Positions 504 through 11,486 of a stretch of 46,347 nt of DNA are shown piece by piece. Origin of the DNA: Glaciecola sp. HTCC2999. GTDB taxonomy: Bacteria; Pseudomonadota; Gammaproteobacteria; Enterobacterales; Alteromonadaceae. The first letter of the stretch is position 1; the number at the start of each line of letters is the position of its first letter. Under the pieces are notes generated by a model. That model was not told the DNA's origin. It was given only the letters and a program-made list of their open reading frames with translations, and did no database searches. The translations under genes and the position numbers were made by a program. Location of the stretch: assembly GCA_949498985.1 (NCBI GenBank), contig CATECQ010000032.1, forward strand, positions 1 through 46,347, given 5' to 3'.

Positions 504-529
504 GATATTTTTCCTCAAATTTGGGGTTA

Positions 530-620
530 GGCCTCCATACATCCCTTTGCTCGATCTGCATTAACAGTGTCAACACTGTTAAATTAGACACCCCGAGGTC
601 AGTGTCGATGTATGTGTGAT
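530..620 (-). promoter_or_regulatory. rpsB leader RNA, probable S2 autoregulatory structure
   Basis: The untranslated leader of rpsB holds two perfect helices. An 8-bp outer stem pairs 607-614 with 536-543 (CATACATC in the RNA with GATGTATG). Inside it lies a hairpin from 563-570 with 573-580 (8 bp, ACACTGTT type). A purine-rich GGAGG (about 531-535) sits at the base of the outer stem, close to the start codon. In gammaproteobacteria S2 represses rpsB-tsf translation through a conserved leader of this kind. I infer the same role; the pairings are visible directly. Confidence 0.65.
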
Positions 621-724
621 TTAATTAGATTATGAAATATTGCACTTAAATCATGCATAACATAACCGATGATATATACAATATTGAGTATGATATTTTA
701 CAATCATTTCAAATTGCGGCGCGT

Positions 725-1769: not shown

Positions 1770-4400
1770 ATGTCTTTTTCTTCACTCATACAACAAGTTC
1801 GTGAAATCCCATCACTTAATGACGTTACTTTATTCAAAAATGCCGTTAACGATTGCTATGTTTACTTAGAAAGTGCATTTGCTACCTCACAGGTCGATGA
1901 CTTAGTTACTGGACGTGCCGAATTTGTCGATGCTTTAGTTTGTCATGCATGGCAATTAGCAGGATTGAATGAGTATAAAAAACTCAGTTTAGTCGCAGTG
2001 GGAGGTTATGGTCGAGGCCAATTACAACCACACTCAGATGTCGATTTATTGATCCTCAGTTCACGCGGCCTACCACGAGGTGCATCCGACCAAATTTCAC
2101 TGTTTTTAACGTTACTTTGGGATGCCAAGTTAGATGTAGGTTCTTCTGTTCGCAGTATTAATGAATGCGTTGAGCAAGCAAAGTTAGATATCACCATTGC
2201 TACCAATATTGTAGAAGCAAGGATCCTGACAGGATGTGATGCGACATTTGATAAAATGCTAAGTAAAGTGAATCAGGATAAGACCTGGACGAGTAAAGCA
2301 TTTTTTAGTGCTAAATATGAGGAACAGCAGCAGCGTCATAATAAATTTAATGGTACCTCATACAACCTAGAGCCTAATGTAAAAGAAAATCCTGGATGTT
2401 TGCGTGATATTCAATCCATTGGCTGGGTTGCTAAAAAACATTTCCAAGAATACGATGGTTATGAGCTTGTTGGCCATGGATATTTCACGGAATTAGAACA
2501 CCAAGAATTATTAAATTGTCGACGCCAGTTATGGCGAATACGTTTTGCCCTTCATTTAGTTGCCGGCCGAAGTGAAAACAGATTACTGTTTGATTACCAA
2601 GCTGACGTTGCACATTTGCTTGGCTTTAATGACGATGATAAAAAAGCCGTTGAACGAATGATGAAACTTTTTTTTCGTGTCGTTCGTCGTGTTACCGAGC
2701 TCAACACCATGTTATTACAACGATTCAAATTCGATGTGTTGAATTTAACGCTGTCATCTGGTCGAGTATTAAACGATGAGTTTAGTGTCAGTGAACGTAC
2801 AATATCTCCTAGAACCGAAACCGTATTTCCTACGCCTTTATCGGTGTTTAAATTCTTACATTTACTGGCTGATAACCCAGATATTGAATCACTCGATTAT
2901 GAATGTATTCGTCAACTCCGTAATGCTCGTCGTCAATTTTCCGAGCAATACTGGGTTGAATATCCAGAATGTCGCACCGCATTTATGACGTTAATGCGTC
3001 ACCCTGATTTTTTTGGTTTTGGTTGGAATGTTATGCATTTGCATGGCATTCTCCAGGCATATCTGCCTCAATGGGATAATATTGTAGGAATGATGCAATT
3101 TGATTTATTCCATGCCTATACTGTAGATGAGCATACGCATCGCTTAATCAAAAATTTGTTCCAGTACTTTGATAAGGGTAATAAAGAATTTCCGCGTTGT
3201 AGTAATATAGTACGCAATTTGGATAAGCCTGAATTATTATTCATCGCAGGTATTTTCCATGATATCGCTAAAGGCCGTGGTGGTGATCACTCTAAATTAG
3301 GCGCTGCGGATGTGTTTGCTTTTGGAGAATCACACGGGTTAACTACCGATGAAATTAATGTCATCAGTTGGTTGGTGGAGTCACATCTTTTGATGTCTGT
3401 TGTTGCTCAACGTCGCGATATTTATGATCCAGAAGTCGTCGCTGATTTTGCCAGTGCCGTGAAAAGTCATAATCATTTAAATATGCTCTATGCGTTGACC
3501 TTAGCAGATATTCGAGCGACCAACGATAGCTTATGGAATGATTGGAAATCTTCTTTACTGAAAGAATTATATTTGTTGACTCAAAAAGCGTTAGACAATG
3601 GTCTGCAATGCCAGATCACATTTAATGAACGTGCGTTACAACACCAAAAAGAAGCTATTGGCATACTTCAACCACAGTGGCAACAAAATGAAATTAATAG
3701 TGTATGGGATCGTCTAGAACAGCCTTATTTTACCCGTTTTAAACCTGTACAAATAGCATGGCATACTCAACAAATACTGCTCCATGAAGATGTAAATGGA
3801 TGGCTCATTAAAACGGCTAACCATACCACTAAAGCAGGAACTGAATTACTGATTTATGGAAAAGATCGCCCAGCCGTATTTGCTCAAATAGCTTCTGTTT
3901 TAGACAGTGCCAACTTATCTATTTTAGATGCTAATATTGCTATCACGCCAGACGGTTATGTGTTTGACAGTATCATCGTAGTCGATGAGGATAATGAAAA
4001 AATTGCATCTACTGAGCGATGCTTTAAAATAGAACAAGCAATTATCGCACAATTAAATAAAGCGACGCATGAACATCAAAACTCTCGTAAGTTATCGCGG
4101 CGTTTAAAACAACTGAATGTACCGACCAAGGTCAGGTTCTTCTCGGCCAGTGATGATGCAACATTAATTGAATTAGAGGCGCTGGATACACCCGGTTTAT
4201 TAGCGTCAATCGGCCATGTTTTTGTTGATTTTAATTTAACACTTCGCCTGGCAAAAATATCGACCATCGGTGAGCGTGCTGAAGATGTATTTATCGTAAG
4301 TGATGAAAACGATCACGCGCTTAGCCCTGAATTACAACTTGCTTTGAAAAAGCAAATTTCTTTAACTCTCGATCAACTGGAAACTGATACAGCATTATGA
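1770..4400 (+). CDS. glnD: Bifunctional PII uridylyltransferase / uridylyl-removing enzyme
   Basis: Senses glutamine and uridylylates or deuridylylates the PII proteins GlnB/GlnK, the master switch of nitrogen control. The product is 876 residues, normal for GlnD. In order it shows a nucleotidyltransferase domain with [17 protein letters not shown] (active-site Asp at about 90 and 92), a GlnD linker region, an HD domain (HTHRLIKNL and [16 protein letters not shown]) that removes UMP, and two C-terminal ACT domains ([13 protein letters not shown] and [13 protein letters not shown]) that bind glutamine. I chose ATG at 1770; an in-frame TTG at 1761 would add three residues. Neither start has a clear Shine-Dalgarno. 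The stop overlaps the dapD start by 4 bp (ATGA), indicating translational coupling. Confidence 0.96.
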
Positions 4401-7926: not shown

Positions 7927-7965
7927 TTAATTGTCCATGACGCAATTTAATTAATGCTGGAAATA

Positions 7966-7996
7966 AAAAAAGCAGTACAAGATGTACTGCCTTTTT
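7966..7996. terminator. Shared terminator: end of csrB-like RNA and of the DUF3301 unit
   Basis: A perfect 8-bp stem GCAGTACA/TGTACTGC (7972-7979 with 7983-7990) has a 3-nt loop. On the minus strand it is followed by TTTTTTTATTT, making it a strong terminator for the small RNA. On the plus strand CTTTTTCT follows, adequate for the DUF3549-DUF3301 unit. Confidence 0.9.
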
Positions 7997-8215
7997 CTAA
8001 TATTTTGAGCTTCCCTCTCAACAATCCTTTGTTATATTTTATCCCTATCAACTTCCGTATTTGCAACATCCCTATTTGCTCCAATTATTCCTTAATTGGC
8101 CGCAACTCCTTGCGCTATTCCCTCTCCTTTAGCACTGATATTAACTATATCAATTATTTGCCCTATGTCATTTCCATAGACACATTTATCGTCCTGATAA
8201 GGCGTACTCCATTAA
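7966..8215 (-). ncRNA. csrB: CsrB/RsmZ-type small RNA sequestering CsrA
   Basis: This gene-free stretch encodes on the minus strand an RNA of about 250 nt with about 13 GGA motifs. Many lie in perfect hairpin loops: TTATC-AGGAC-GATAA (8186-8200), CGCAA-GGAG-TTGCG (8101-8114), CCAATTA-AGGAA-TAATTGG (8081-8099), AACAA-AGGA-TTGTT (8020-8033) and TTGAG-AGGGAAG-CTCAA (8005-8021). A GCTA/TAGC stem (8114-8133) presents two GGAs. The RNA ends in a strong terminator. CsrB RNAs titrate the translational regulator CsrA through exactly such GGA loops. In E. coli csrB lies beside syd and yqcC in the same truC region, so synteny agrees. A GacA/UvrY box lies upstream. The 5' end near 8215 is inferred from a promoter match. 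Every reading frame here is scrambled or lacks homology. Confidence 0.88.
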
Positions 8216-8220
8216 CTTGA

Positions 8221-8250
8221 TATTAAGACTACGTTATTTTGAGTCAGTAA
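8221..8250 (-). promoter_or_regulatory. Candidate promoter of the csrB-like RNA
   Basis: On the minus strand TTACTG (8245-8250) and TTAATA (8221-8226) are separated by 18 bp, just upstream of the first GGA motif. The match is modest, as expected of an activator-dependent promoter. Confidence 0.45.
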
Positions 8251-8388: not shown

Positions 8389-8406
8389 AGTAAGATATCT
8401 CTTACA
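8389..8406 (-). promoter_or_regulatory. GacA/UvrY (VarA) binding box upstream of csrB
   Basis: The minus strand reads TGTAAGAGATATCTTACT, an 18-bp palindrome matching the GacA consensus TGTAAG-N6-CTTACA at 11 of the 12 fixed positions. It is centred about 185 bp upstream of the proposed RNA start, similar to the far-upstream UvrY site of E. coli csrB. Two further TGTAAG half-sites lie between box and promoter (8332-8337 and 8264-8269). Confidence 0.8.
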
Positions 8407-8433: not shown

Positions 8434-9075
8434 TTATTTAGATTTGTACAATATTCGACCGTTTATATGCGGCGTGGAAACGTTTTCAATGAGATTAAAA
8501 CCACCATCGTCAAAAAATGATAAACATTTATCCAATGTGGCAAACACTGCGACGCCATTTGAATTTTCGTCTTCATCAATCACTTCATTGATTGCAGCTA
8601 ACAGGATATGACCAATACCTTGATCTTGTAATGCCGGTTGAACACCAATGAATGAAATCATATGACAATTTTTTTCAGGCAACTTCGTCCTTACAATTTT
8701 TTCTTTTTCTAAAAATTGTTTAGTACCTAAATAACCCGCCGTTAAAAGCATCTTTAAACGCCAATGCCAATAACGGCTATGCCCAAATTCTGGTTCGGGG
8801 TTTATCAAACAAGTAGTGGCAACTAGAGAGCCTTCTTTAAAGACACCAATAATGGGTTGTTTAGCTTCCCAAAATGTATTGAGTTCTTCTCGAATTGCAC
8901 CGCGCAATCGGACTTCATATCCCTCTTCTTCCTGGTCAAATATTTGACAGAATAAAGGATCATCATAATATGCATTATAGAGTATTGATGCCGCAACTTT
9001 GAGATCAGACGCCGATAAGTATCTGACTTCAAAGTCAAGTTCTTCCTTAATATTATCTACGGTAGTTGCTTGCAT
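8434..9075 (-). CDS. GNAT-family N-acetyltransferase
   Basis: A 213-residue protein with a GNAT fold. The acetyl-CoA-binding motif A is ISFIGVQPALQDQGIGHILL (about residues 141-160), with the V-x(4)-Q-x-x-G-I-G pattern. A C-terminal strand and loop (GVAVFATLDKCLSFFDDGGF) complete the core. The substrate cannot be told from the sequence. The N-terminal half (EVRYLSASDLKVAASILYNAYYDDPLF) is typical of small-molecule acetyltransferases. The ATG at 9073-9075 has GAGG a few bases upstream. The gene ends 28 bp before the GacA box, and its transcript would run toward the csrB-like RNA. I see no terminator between them. Confidence 0.85.
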   Translation of the reverse strand: MQATTVDNIKEELDFEVRYLSASDLKVAASILYNAYYDDPLFCQIFDQEEEGYEVRLRGAIREELNTFWEAKQPIIGVFKEGSLVATTCLINPEPEFGHSRYWHWRLKMLLTAGYLGTKQFLEKEKIVRTKLPEKNCHMISFIGVQPALQDQGIGHILLAAINEVIDEDENSNGVAVFATLDKCLSFFDDGGFNLIENVSTPHINGRILYKSK

Positions 9076-9747: not shown

Positions 9748-10092
9748 ATGAATAAAATGGATAACTCAACAAAACAACGATTACTGACAATTTGTGCTGA
9801 ATTAGATGCAAAAAGCCTCCCTATTTCTGTCGGCTTAGTCAAAGCTAAAGCGAAACAGGCTATTCCGTTACCTAATATCGTCAACGTCATAAATGCATTC
9901 AAAGGGGGGGAACGAGCAGATACAATTGATACGTTACTACCACAGCAAACGGCTGAGCATTCAAAAGAAGACGTTAAGCCTATAACAATAGATGACTTAG
10001 CACGCCAAATAGCGATACAACAGACAGAAATCGATAGTTTACGAGTACAAGTATCAAAATTAACACAGGCTTTCAAAAAAATGAGTCAATGA
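9748..10092 (+). CDS. Unrecognised small protein, helical N-terminus and C-terminal coiled coil
   Basis: I do not recognise this 114-residue protein. Residues about 8-52 (KQRLLTICAELDAKSLPISV, then AKAKQAIPLPNIVNVINAFK) look like a small helical DNA-binding-type module, loosely reminiscent of KfrA N-termini. A polar linker follows. Residues about 78-112 (TIDDLARQIAIQQTEIDSLR, then VQVSKLTQAFKKM) have a heptad pattern suggesting a coiled coil. Start options are ATG 9748 and ATG 9757; neither has a strong Shine-Dalgarno. Its 3' end overlaps the end of syd on the opposite strand by 33 bp, so no terminator can fit between them. Regulation of its own promoter through the upstream repeats is speculation. 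Confidence 0.65.
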   Translation: MNKMDNSTKQRLLTICAELDAKSLPISVGLVKAKAKQAIPLPNIVNVINAFKGGERADTIDTLLPQQTAEHSKEDVKPITIDDLARQIAIQQTEIDSLRVQVSKLTQAFKKMSQ

Positions 10093-10578
10093 GGGGGAGA
10101 TTACCTCAGTAGGTTCCTTACCGACCGGCTCGAGCATGACTTCTCCGGTACTCATCAATACCGAAATTAGATAATTATCATTTTCGGGTAACCCTATAAA
10201 TAATGTGTCGGCTTGTTTCAAGCGCCGTTTCATTAATACGTGCCCAATCAAGTTTTCTTGTAAACGCTCAAAATCTTCTTCATTCCATGCTTGAAGTAAC
10301 GTAATTTTTCCTTGGTTGATCGTCACTTCTAAATGCTCAGCATAAAAAGCAGCATAAAATTCAAGCAAAGGTGCTGATAGGTCTAGGTCTAATGCTCGAC
10401 CAAATTCAGACATATCATCGACCGGTCGAGCAATCGGTGTCCAGGTAACCTCTTGACCTTCAGTAAGTGCCTCAATAGATTCATTGATGCATGGAGAGGG
10501 CCAAAGAGGGTCAAACTGTGTGGTTAACTTGACAGATTCAGTATACCTTGCCATAAATTTTTGCCATTCAGATTGCAT
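10060..10578 (-). CDS. syd: SecY-interacting protein Syd
   Basis: A cytoplasmic, membrane-associated protein that binds SecY and in E. coli helps proofread defective translocons. The 172-residue product keeps the family landmarks PSPCINES, the LLQAWNEEDFERLQENLIGH stretch and LMKRRLKQADTLFIG. I chose ATG at 10576-10578, with AAGAGG about 11 nt upstream. An in-frame GTG at 10588-10590 would add four residues but has no spaced Shine-Dalgarno. The last 33 bp are shared with the converging coiled-coil gene. Syd lies divergent to queF, as in E. coli, and on the far side of the region is the csrB-like RNA, again as in E. coli. Confidence 0.93.
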   Translation of the reverse strand: MQSEWQKFMARYTESVKLTTQFDPLWPSPCINESIEALTEGQEVTWTPIARPVDDMSEFGRALDLDLSAPLLEFYAAFYAEHLEVTINQGKITLLQAWNEEDFERLQENLIGHVLMKRRLKQADTLFIGLPENDNYLISVLMSTGEVMLEPVGKEPTEVISPSLTHFFESLC

Positions 10579-10643
10579 AAAGACAGACACCTCTTAGAAG
10601 AATTGGGTAAAATAGTGAGATTATTCATTACTGTATTTCATGT

Positions 10644-11486
10644 ATGTCTCAAGATTATCATAATAACCCACAATTAGCCGGTCTCGCATTAGGTAAATCA
10701 GTCACTTATTCTGACCATTATGACGTCAGTTTATTACAGCCAGTACCCAGAGCTTTAAACCGTAATATGATTGGTTTGACTAATGAACTACCATTTTCAG
10801 GGAATGATATTTGGAACGGATATGAATTATCATGGTTAAATGCTAAGGGCATGCCTCAAGTCGCCATTTTACGCTGTACCGTTGCCTATGACAGTATCAA
10901 TATCATTGAATCTAAATCGTTTAAACTGTACCTAAATAGTTTTAATAATTCGCGCTTTGATTCAATAGAGAGAGTAAAATCCGTCTTAACCACTGATTTA
11001 AGTCAATGTGCACAAGGCACTGTTACTGTCGATATTATTCCAAATTGTGAATTTAACCATCAGCAATTACATATCCCTAAAGGGACATTACTTGATACAT
11101 TGGATTTATCATTTGATGAATATGTGGTTTCACCCAATTTACTTCAAGCTAATGATCGTGAGATCGTTCAAGAATTTTTATACTCTAACCTACTCAAATC
11201 CAATTGCTTGATCACGAATCAACCAGACTGGGCGAGTGTTTTCATCAAATATACAGGTCCCAGAATTGATCATGAATCGCTGTTGCGTTATCTCATTTCG
11301 TTTCGACAACATAATGAATTTCATGAACAGTGTGTCGAGCGAATATTTTGTGACCTTATGCACAATTGCCGTTGCGAACAGTTAACAGTATTAGCTAGAT
11401 ATACTCGTCGTGGTGGATTAGATATCAATCCATTTAGAAGTAATTTTGAATCTCCTTATCCTGATTGGCGTTTAATACGTCAATAA
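10644..11486 (+). CDS. queF: NADPH-dependent 7-cyano-7-deazaguanine reductase (long form)
   Basis: Reduces preQ0 to preQ1 in queuosine biosynthesis. At 280 residues it is the two-domain (YqcD-type) QueF. The substrate-binding motif ESKSFKLYLNSFNNSRF is at 89-105. The catalytic Cys is C188 in LLKSNCLITNQPDWASV. The C-terminal half has the H-x-x-C-V-E-R-I-F pattern (EFHEQCVERIFCDL) and YTRRGGLDINPFRS. The ATG at 10644 matches the family start. It is divergently transcribed from syd, with only 65 bp between the two start codons. A weak 5-bp hairpin with a T-run follows at 11511-11531. Confidence 0.96.
   Translation: MSQDYHNNPQLAGLALGKSVTYSDHYDVSLLQPVPRALNRNMIGLTNELPFSGNDIWNGYELSWLNAKGMPQVAILRCTVAYDSINIIESKSFKLYLNSFNNSRFDSIERVKSVLTTDLSQCAQGTVTVDIIPNCEFNHQQLHIPKGTLLDTLDLSFDEYVVSPNLLQANDREIVQEFLYSNLLKSNCLITNQPDWASVFIKYTGPRIDHESLLRYLISFRQHNEFHEQCVERIFCDLMHNCRCEQLTVLARYTRRGGLDINPFRSNFESPYPDWRLIRQ

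What the first reader, a model, noticed from the sequence alone, without database searches (positions are those of the whole stretch)
7966..8215. Unannotated CsrB-type small RNA on the minus strand
What looks like an empty 500-bp gap reads on the minus strand as an RNA with about 13 GGA motifs in about 250 nt. At least five sit in the loops of perfect 5-7 bp hairpins, and the RNA ends in a strong terminator. CsrB/RsmZ RNAs are defined by this design, not by sequence identity, so ordinary searches often miss them. Location next to the syd region matches E. coli csrB. It would be the central antagonist of CsrA in this organism.
Basis: partly seen in the sequence, partly recalled or inferred. Interest (0 to 1): 0.85.

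Follow-up and report, generated by a model that had tools for sequence, protein, structure and literature searches.

The report
CsrB-type sponge RNA, marine Glaciecola
The gap holds a small RNA gene, missed by standard RNA-family searches, that most likely soaks up the regulator protein CsrA as its relatives do in E. coli and other bacteria; it is a well-supported new member of a known kind rather than something new.

Summary
The minus strand of 8213..7965 carries 13 GGA in about 250 nt, the densest stretch of the window (next 8; 3 of 5000 dinucleotide shuffles reach 13). Five GGA lie in loops of perfect 5-7 bp hairpins (2 of 1000 shuffles); a terminator closes the RNA. A GacA/UvrY-type box lies at 8406..8389, about 193 bp before the inferred start; in 18 of 38 relatives' loci a box starts 184-190 bp before a conserved 5' end. 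The RNA is present in 9 of 10 genomes of its genus; the tenth is cut by a contig end. It lies at the same place in 33 of 56 family genomes (own included), controls 1, 0, 0. Stems covary while GGAs stay. Neighbours match E. coli csrB in order and orientation. CsrA and UvrY genes are present. Rfam misses it at curated thresholds. Transcription and CsrA binding are untested. Verdict: very probably a csrB orthologue, one copy found, shortest of seven measured in its genus; an ordinary kind.

The parts
7965..8213 (-). CsrB-type small RNA, about 249 nt, 13 GGA motifs; 5' end inferred
8389..8406 (-). GacA/UvrY-binding-box-like palindrome TGTAAGAGATATCTTACT, one mismatch to TGTAAGN6CTTACA
   Evidence: spacing compared with relatives; consensus as quoted in PMC3171408
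8220..8225 (-). likely -10 element TAATAT, aligned by eye with TAATAT of four same-genus relatives (G001, G004, G005, G006)
   Evidence: inference from comparison, no start-site mapping; the generic promoter scan did not list it
7965..7996 (-). Rho-independent terminator; the same hairpin has a T-rich tail on the + strand and may also end the DUF3301 transcript
   Evidence: sequence
8186..8200 (-). 5 bp hairpin TTATC-AGGAC-GATAA with GGA (8194) in the loop
8101..8114 (-). 5 bp hairpin CGCAA-GGAG-TTGCG with GGA (8109) in the loop; 70% of cells paired across 8 sequences
8081..8099 (-). 7 bp hairpin CCAATTA-AGGAA-TAATTGG with GGA (8091) in the loop; 2 pairs with changes on both sides, 100% of cells paired
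8020..8033 (-). 5 bp hairpin AACAA-AGGA-TTGTT with GGA (8027) in the loop; shares two bases with the next hairpin
8005..8021 (-). 4-5 bp hairpin TTGAG-AGGGAAG-CTCAA with GGA (8014) in the loop
5326..5769 (-). yqcA-like flavodoxin gene (context)
   Evidence: name by position from E. coli
5776..6513 (-). truC-like pseudouridine synthase gene (context)
   Evidence: name by position from E. coli
7612..7926 (+). DUF3301 gene, used as the anchor for the synteny search
8434..9075 (-). GNAT-like gene directly upstream; sub-cut-off Pfam matches only
   Evidence: still linked to the RNA in G017 where the locus has moved
10060..10590 (-). syd gene (context)
10644..11486 (+). queF gene (context)

Best explanation
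This is the csrB gene of a marine Glaciecola-like bacterium. Inferred chain: a BarA/GacS-type kinase phosphorylates UvrY/GacA; UvrY binds the box at 8406..8389 and switches on a promoter with -10 at 8225..8220; an untranslated RNA of about 249 nt is made and ends at 7965; its exposed GGA motifs bind CsrA dimers and take them off mRNAs, relieving CsrA control. Shown here: sequence, box, spacing, conservation, covariation, synteny, and presence of CsrA and UvrY genes. Inferred: transcription, UvrY binding, CsrA binding and the downstream effect.
For: GGA density and loop placement above chance. Box with one mismatch; of the 5 such sites in the genome it is the only one with a GGA-dense stretch nearby (13, others at most 8). 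In 18 of 38 relatives' loci a box starts 184-190 bp before the GTC..GGA 5' end. Alignment of 8 genus members: 8 of the 10 GGAs of the 3' half are invariant columns (counted by hand); 12 of 34 pairs have changes on both sides (1 of 500 shuffles reach 12; slid controls 0-8), 85% of cells paired against 36-49% in slid controls. Covariance model R1 (built in part from this RNA) finds one strong match in the own genome (E 7.5e-50), next 11.5 bits, E 0.66; it also matches family members not used to build it, such as L024 (135 bits), L028 (130), L014 (113), and in another family of the order (G027) a stretch about 400 bp downstream of syd, 25.4 bits, E 2.5e-5. 33 of 56 family genomes (own included) have 11 or more GGA per 250 nt antisense and downstream of DUF3301; controls 1, 0, 0 of 56; 32 of the 33 have a box with up to two mismatches upstream. 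Rfam RF00018 or RF00195 sub-threshold matches in 12 of 18 syntenic loci, best 63.6 bits, E 1e-14. Order yqcA-truC-...-csrB-...-syd-queF as in E. coli. Across the order, 13 of 48 syd loci have a same-strand GGA-dense stretch within about 5 kb downstream, 0 of 48 antisense; of the 6 of these 13 given to Rfam, 2, in two other families, pass the CsrB cut-off. CsrA 88.9 bits, UvrY 318.6 bits, both over cut-off, in the own genome.
Against: No Rfam match at curated cut-offs; own-sequence best is PrrB_RsmZ 21.3 bits against 44; RF00018 gives nothing at this locus even at E 10. R1 hits E. coli csrB only at 9.3 bits, E 0.42, so sequence homology to E. coli csrB is not shown directly, and 2 of 31 other loci given to it (L085, L094) have no match at E 1. 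23 of 56 family genomes lack the RNA by this test at this place; in one (G017) it lies elsewhere, the others were not resolved. 35 of 48 syd loci across the order lack it nearby. The box motif is not specific by itself: 5 sites in the genome, and 5 for the reversed control pattern. The promoter scan found no excess of promoters and not this -10. BarA could not be assigned to one kinase. No transcript data.
Confidence: 0.94

Rival explanations
1. A decaying csrB: the RNA was a full CsrB but this lineage is losing it, so it is weakly functional.
For: Shortest of seven measured in the genus: 249 nt and 13 GGA against 298-364 nt and 18-24 GGA in six relatives (non-overlapping count); it is about 90 nt shorter than its nearest relative G007, in several gaps of the 5' and middle part; the GTCACA-type 5' start of relatives is not recognisable.
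Against: The 3' half, the box, the -10-like element and the terminator are kept; several stem positions that differ from relatives still pair. 13 GGA is close to E. coli CsrC, given as 14 in PMC11882849 (passage).
Confidence: 0.05
2. A short protein gene on the + strand (7954..8220, 88 aa ORF), with the GGA pattern an antisense by-product.
For: An ATG ORF of 88 aa spans the region on the + strand.
Against: No Pfam match at E 0.01; all three + frames of the G007 counterpart contain stops; its best tblastn match there is 54 residues at E 3.5e-5, as expected from aligned conserved DNA, and the matches in the other seven loci searched have E 0.15 or worse. RNA stems covary while GGAs stay, which is RNA rather than codon constraint.
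Confidence: 0.005
3. A chance GGA-rich, A-rich intergenic stretch.
For: Purine-rich composition raises the expected GGA count to 6-7; 11 GGA per 250 nt is reached once inside a coding stretch of the own genome (L136), and 13 once in a family control.
Against: Shuffle tests, conservation, box spacing and synteny.
Confidence: 0.005

Closest known systems
E. coli CsrB (Rfam RF00018)
   Same: Many GGA motifs in loops (recalled), same strand and order between truC and syd-queF.
   Different: 369 nt in the MG1655 annotation against about 249 nt here; no sequence match by Rfam; here DUF3549 and DUF3301 lie between truC and the RNA, and GNAT-like and DUF3192 genes between the RNA and syd.
Shewanella oneidensis CsrB1/CsrB2 (PMC3171408, passages read)
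   Same: UvrY/GacA box TGTAAGN6CTTACA upstream; AGGA/ARGGA motifs; expression shown to depend on UvrY.
   Different: Two copies of about 420 nt at one locus, separated by a transposase gene; here one copy found.
Alteromonas macleodii Aln1a-c (PMC5864184, passages read)
   Same: CsrB-like RNAs with A(N)GGA motifs, highly expressed, from a marine gamma-proteobacterium; that it belongs to the same broad group as the window is recalled.
   Different: Three RNAs from one 404-bp intergenic region with three start sites; whether that region is the syd locus was not tested.
Pseudoalteromonas fuliginea Pf1, Pf2, Pf3 (PMC9927453, PMC11882849, passages read)
   Same: GGA-rich RNAs; Pf1 has a putative GacA box; CsrA binding by EMSA reported for Pf2 and Pf3, glycogen effect in E. 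coli for all three.
   Different: Three RNAs in one genome; authors found no Pf1 or Pf2 sequence matches outside the genus.
RsmZ/PrrB (Rfam RF00166)
   Same: Best sub-threshold Rfam match of the window RNA, 3' half, 21.3 bits, E 0.008.
   Different: Half the gathering score; the model has 133 positions; position in the genome points to CsrB.

Membership tests
CsrB/CsrC/Rsm-type CsrA-sequestering RNA (functional family) | Many GGA motifs, beyond chance, mostly in hairpin loops or single strands | tested here: met
CsrB/CsrC/Rsm-type CsrA-sequestering RNA (functional family) | Free-standing non-coding gene with Rho-independent terminator | tested here: met
   by sequence:
CsrB/CsrC/Rsm-type CsrA-sequestering RNA (functional family) | GacA/UvrY box upstream of the promoter | tested here: met
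CsrB/CsrC/Rsm-type CsrA-sequestering RNA (functional family) | CsrA in the same genome | tested here: met
   88.9 bits, over cut-off 27
CsrB/CsrC/Rsm-type CsrA-sequestering RNA (functional family) | UvrY/GacA regulator in the same genome | tested here: met
   318.6 bits, over cut-off 280
CsrB/CsrC/Rsm-type CsrA-sequestering RNA (functional family) | BarA/GacS kinase in the same genome | tested here: inconclusive
   best match 36% over residues 279-779 of E. coli BarA, others to kinase or receiver parts; none assignable as BarA
CsrB/CsrC/Rsm-type CsrA-sequestering RNA (functional family) | Transcribed as a stable RNA | not testable with these tools
   no expression data on hand
CsrB/CsrC/Rsm-type CsrA-sequestering RNA (functional family) | Binds and antagonises CsrA | not testable with these tools
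   needs EMSA or co-purification
E. coli csrB orthologue by position | Same strand between yqcA-truC and syd-queF | tested here: met
Rfam RF00018 CsrB as a sequence family | Score at or above gathering cut-off 71 bits | tested here: not met
   also not met by any of 18 syntenic relatives. So it is not filed as an RF00018 member; the functional filing does not rest on it
Rfam RF00166 PrrB_RsmZ | Score at or above gathering cut-off 44 bits | tested here: not met
   21.3 bits

The most novel reading that the evidence does not exclude
csrB near syd is an ancient locus shared by E. coli and the Alteromonas-Glaciecola group, whose RNA has drifted beyond Rfam's reach while keeping place, box spacing and GGA/stem design; along this lineage the number of CsrA sites is evolutionarily tunable, from 13 GGA here to 39 in a species of the same genus that tandemly repeats a 75-nt unit, so reports of 'de novo' Csr RNAs in related marine genera may be drifted orthologues.
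Probability: 0.5. Interest if true: 0.45.

Novelty: new member of a known kind. Interest (0 to 1): 0.33.

Why it matters
CsrA-sponge RNAs set the switch between growth modes, motility and biofilm in many gamma-proteobacteria (recalled, and as stated in the papers seen), yet the curated Rfam thresholds miss this one and all 18 syntenic relatives scanned. The conserved address (between DUF3301 or truC and GNAT or syd), the box spacing and the new alignment give a practical way to annotate csrB in marine genomes, and the spread in GGA number within one genus is a natural series for asking how many CsrA sites a sponge needs.

Tried and rejected
Second copies in the own genome: none convincing (RF00018 search; R1 search; flanks of the other four GacA-box sites). 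Weak R1 hits away from the locus in six genomes (G002, G004, G006, G007, G009, G011) were fetched and show no GGA-dense stretch (at most 8 per 250 nt), so I treat them as chance. The other weak R1 hits were not looked at. Around the own-genome hit at C7:1213 (L136) 11 GGA per 250 nt occur, but inside an ORF on the other strand and away from the hit.

Losses: 23 of 56 family genomes fail the DUF3301-anchored test. Only G017 was traced: its RNA sits with a GNAT-like and a DUF3192-like gene on another contig. I did not look for the RNA elsewhere in the rest, beyond the 40 genomes. G003 (same genus) is cut by a contig end inside DUF3301 and had no R1 match. In one search genomes already positive were mostly scored with 1.5 kb flanks and the others with up to 4 kb, so control lengths differ. 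One of 57 genomes (G069) gave no DUF3301 match in that script and was left out.

A joint structure from RNAalifold put GGAs at the start of the block into a long closing stem with the terminator tail; I did not adopt it and counted local hairpins named from the window sequence instead, which by itself favours them over the slid controls. Hairpins 1 and 3 of that count are only 70-72% paired because some inner pairs occur only in the window and its nearest relative.

Literature: searches for Glaciecola with CsrB found 0 papers; csrB with syd in five-term form 0 and two-term form 5, seen as a listing only, none on marine relatives by title; csrB with genomic location, Vibrio and Shewanella 0; CsrB with Alteromonas 4. 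The library holds open-licence papers only.

Full report
What is there. The minus strand of 8213..7965 holds 13 GGA motifs, the highest 250-nt count on either strand of the window (next 8), and beyond shuffles (10 of 5000 mononucleotide, 3 of 5000 dinucleotide). Five of 13 GGAs lie wholly in loops of perfect Watson-Crick hairpins of 5 bp or more (2 of 1000 shuffles that hold the GGAs in place), nine at 4 bp or more (0 of 1000), one at 6 bp or more (199 of 1000). With G-U allowed the counts are 11, 9 and 5 at 4, 5 and 6 bp (63, 11 and 32 of 1000). The fold is more stable than all 200 shuffles (z -3.7). At two GGAs (8082, 8044) both G are paired in the ensemble. A hairpin followed by seven T ends the RNA at 7965; on the + strand the same hairpin has a T-rich tail and may end the DUF3301 transcript (inference).

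Upstream signals. At 8406..8389 lies TGTAAGAGATATCTTACT, one mismatch from the GacA/UvrY box TGTAAGN6CTTACA (consensus as quoted in PMC3171408, passages read). Five sites with at most one mismatch exist in the held genome, but the reversed control pattern also gives five, so the motif alone is not specific. Only the window site has a GGA-dense stretch within 1.5 kb (13, others at most 8). In 38 loci of relatives examined, 18 have both a recognisable GTC..GGA 5' end and a box 184-190 bp before it; in the other 20 one of the two was not recognised by the pattern or the distance differed. In the window the start is inferred from an aligned TAATAT (-10) at 8225..8220, which puts the box 193 bp upstream. 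The generic promoter scan shows no excess of promoters (6 found, 7.5 expected) and does not list this -10.

Relatives. Nearest named relatives are Glaciecola sp. HTCC2999 (87% identity in the neighbouring GNAT-like protein) and an uncultured Glaciecola (73%), the only two loci found. The contig length of the HTCC2999 record equals that of G007:C8. A DNA search of 40 genomes found the 3' part of the RNA in G001, G005, G006, G007 and G009. The short G027 matches in that search fall in query positions 126-169, the AT-rich stretch upstream of the RNA, and are not counted. With DUF3301 as anchor and a covariance model, 9 of 10 genomes of the genus carry the RNA at this place; the tenth, G003, is cut at a contig end.

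RNA-level constraint. In an alignment of the 3' half from eight genus members, 8 of the 10 GGAs are invariant columns; of the other two, one is lost in G001 and one is shifted by a base in the window (counted by hand). For five named helices (34 pairs), 85.2% of cells are paired (slid controls 36-49%), 12 pairs have changes on both sides (shuffle mean 6.3, 1 of 500 reach 12; slid controls 0-8), covariation score 0.305 (0 of 500 shuffles). Further pair types, 25, is not unusual (87 of 500). Eight of the 12 pairs are in the terminator, two in the 7-bp GGA hairpin, one each in two others. The helices were named from the window sequence, which favours them over the slid controls.

Family and order. 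Of 59 family genomes, 57 have DUF3301. In 56 assessable ones, own included, 33 have at least 11 GGA per 250 nt antisense and downstream; the other strand gives 1, and the two strands upstream give 0 and 0; 32 of 33 have a box with up to two mismatches upstream. Rfam in permissive mode gives CsrB (11) or RsmY (1) matches in 12 of 18 syntenic loci (best 63.6 bits), none reaching the gathering score. Across the order, 49 of 79 genomes have Syd. Of the 48 other than the own genome, 13 have a same-strand GGA-dense stretch within about 5 kb downstream of syd, 0 on the other strand; 10 of 13 have a box; 8 of 18 families are represented. A few of these sit near the threshold (11, 12, 13) and may be chance, and the box counted in G027 is a T-rich two-mismatch site. 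Of 19 syd loci given to Rfam, six of them GGA-dense, 2 pass the CsrB cut-off. In E. coli K-12 the order is yqcA, truC, yqcC, csrB, syd (all minus), queF (plus). In the window it is flavodoxin and truC-like (minus), DUF3549 and DUF3301 (plus), the RNA, GNAT-like and DUF3192 (minus), a small plus ORF, syd (minus), queF (plus). The RNA therefore has the same flanking landmarks and orientation, with other genes between on both sides.

Partners and copy number. CsrA and UvrY/GacA genes are present above curated cut-offs. BarA is not assignable: the best kinase match covers residues 279-779 at 36%, and another gene matches the C-terminal part. The covariance model R1 finds one convincing copy in the held genome, which is 83.5% complete. 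R1 reaches E. coli csrB only at 9.3 bits, E 0.42.

Size variation. The window RNA is the shortest of seven measured in its genus: 249 nt, 13 GGA, against 298-364 nt and 18-24 GGA in six relatives. Compared with G007 it is about 90 nt shorter, in several gaps of the 5' and middle part. At the other end, G002 has 39 GGA, partly through 3.3 tandem copies of a 75-nt unit; L024 (another genus), with 49 GGA in its cluster, has no tandem repeat at that threshold.

Mechanism and verdict. Most likely phosphorylated UvrY activates this promoter and the RNA titrates CsrA. UvrY-dependent expression was reported for Shewanella CsrB1/2 (PMC3171408, passages), and CsrA binding or glycogen effects for Pseudoalteromonas Pf RNAs (PMC11882849 and PMC9927453, passages). 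Alteromonas Aln1a-c were reported as CsrB analogues from dRNA-seq (PMC5864184, passages). I did not test where those RNAs lie relative to syd. Expression, binding and physiological role of the window RNA are inferred. It is a new member of a known kind; its main interest is the drifted sequence with conserved address and the spread in binding-site number.

Noticed in passing
window 526-636, minus: Rfam t44 RNA (68.9 bits, cut-off 44) beside a methionyl aminopeptidase gene at 853-1644 on the other strand; t44 is recalled as an rpsB leader.
   Followed up: no
L012 952-1196 (genome G002): A species of the same genus has 3.3 tandem copies (90% matches) of a 75-nt GGA-containing unit inside its csrB, giving 39 GGA in the RNA region.
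   Followed up: partly
L134 (genome G017): The csrB-like RNA (18 GGA per 250 nt, box present) is not beside DUF3301 but beside a GNAT-like and a DUF3192-like gene, so RNA and GNAT seem to move together.
   Followed up: partly
window 8434-9075, minus: The GNAT-like gene, with only sub-cut-off Pfam matches, is a frequent neighbour of this RNA in family genomes; its role is unknown.
   Followed up: no
L070 (genome G058), 1894-2046 and 3801-3920, plus: Two R1 matches (28.2 and 38.5 bits) about 1.9 kb apart suggest two csrB-like RNAs at the locus; both lie in or next to GGA-rich stretches.
   Followed up: no
window 9748-10092, plus: Small ORF between DUF3192 and syd, overlapping the 3' end of syd, with only a weak SlyX match (19.8 bits, cut-off 30).
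   Followed up: no
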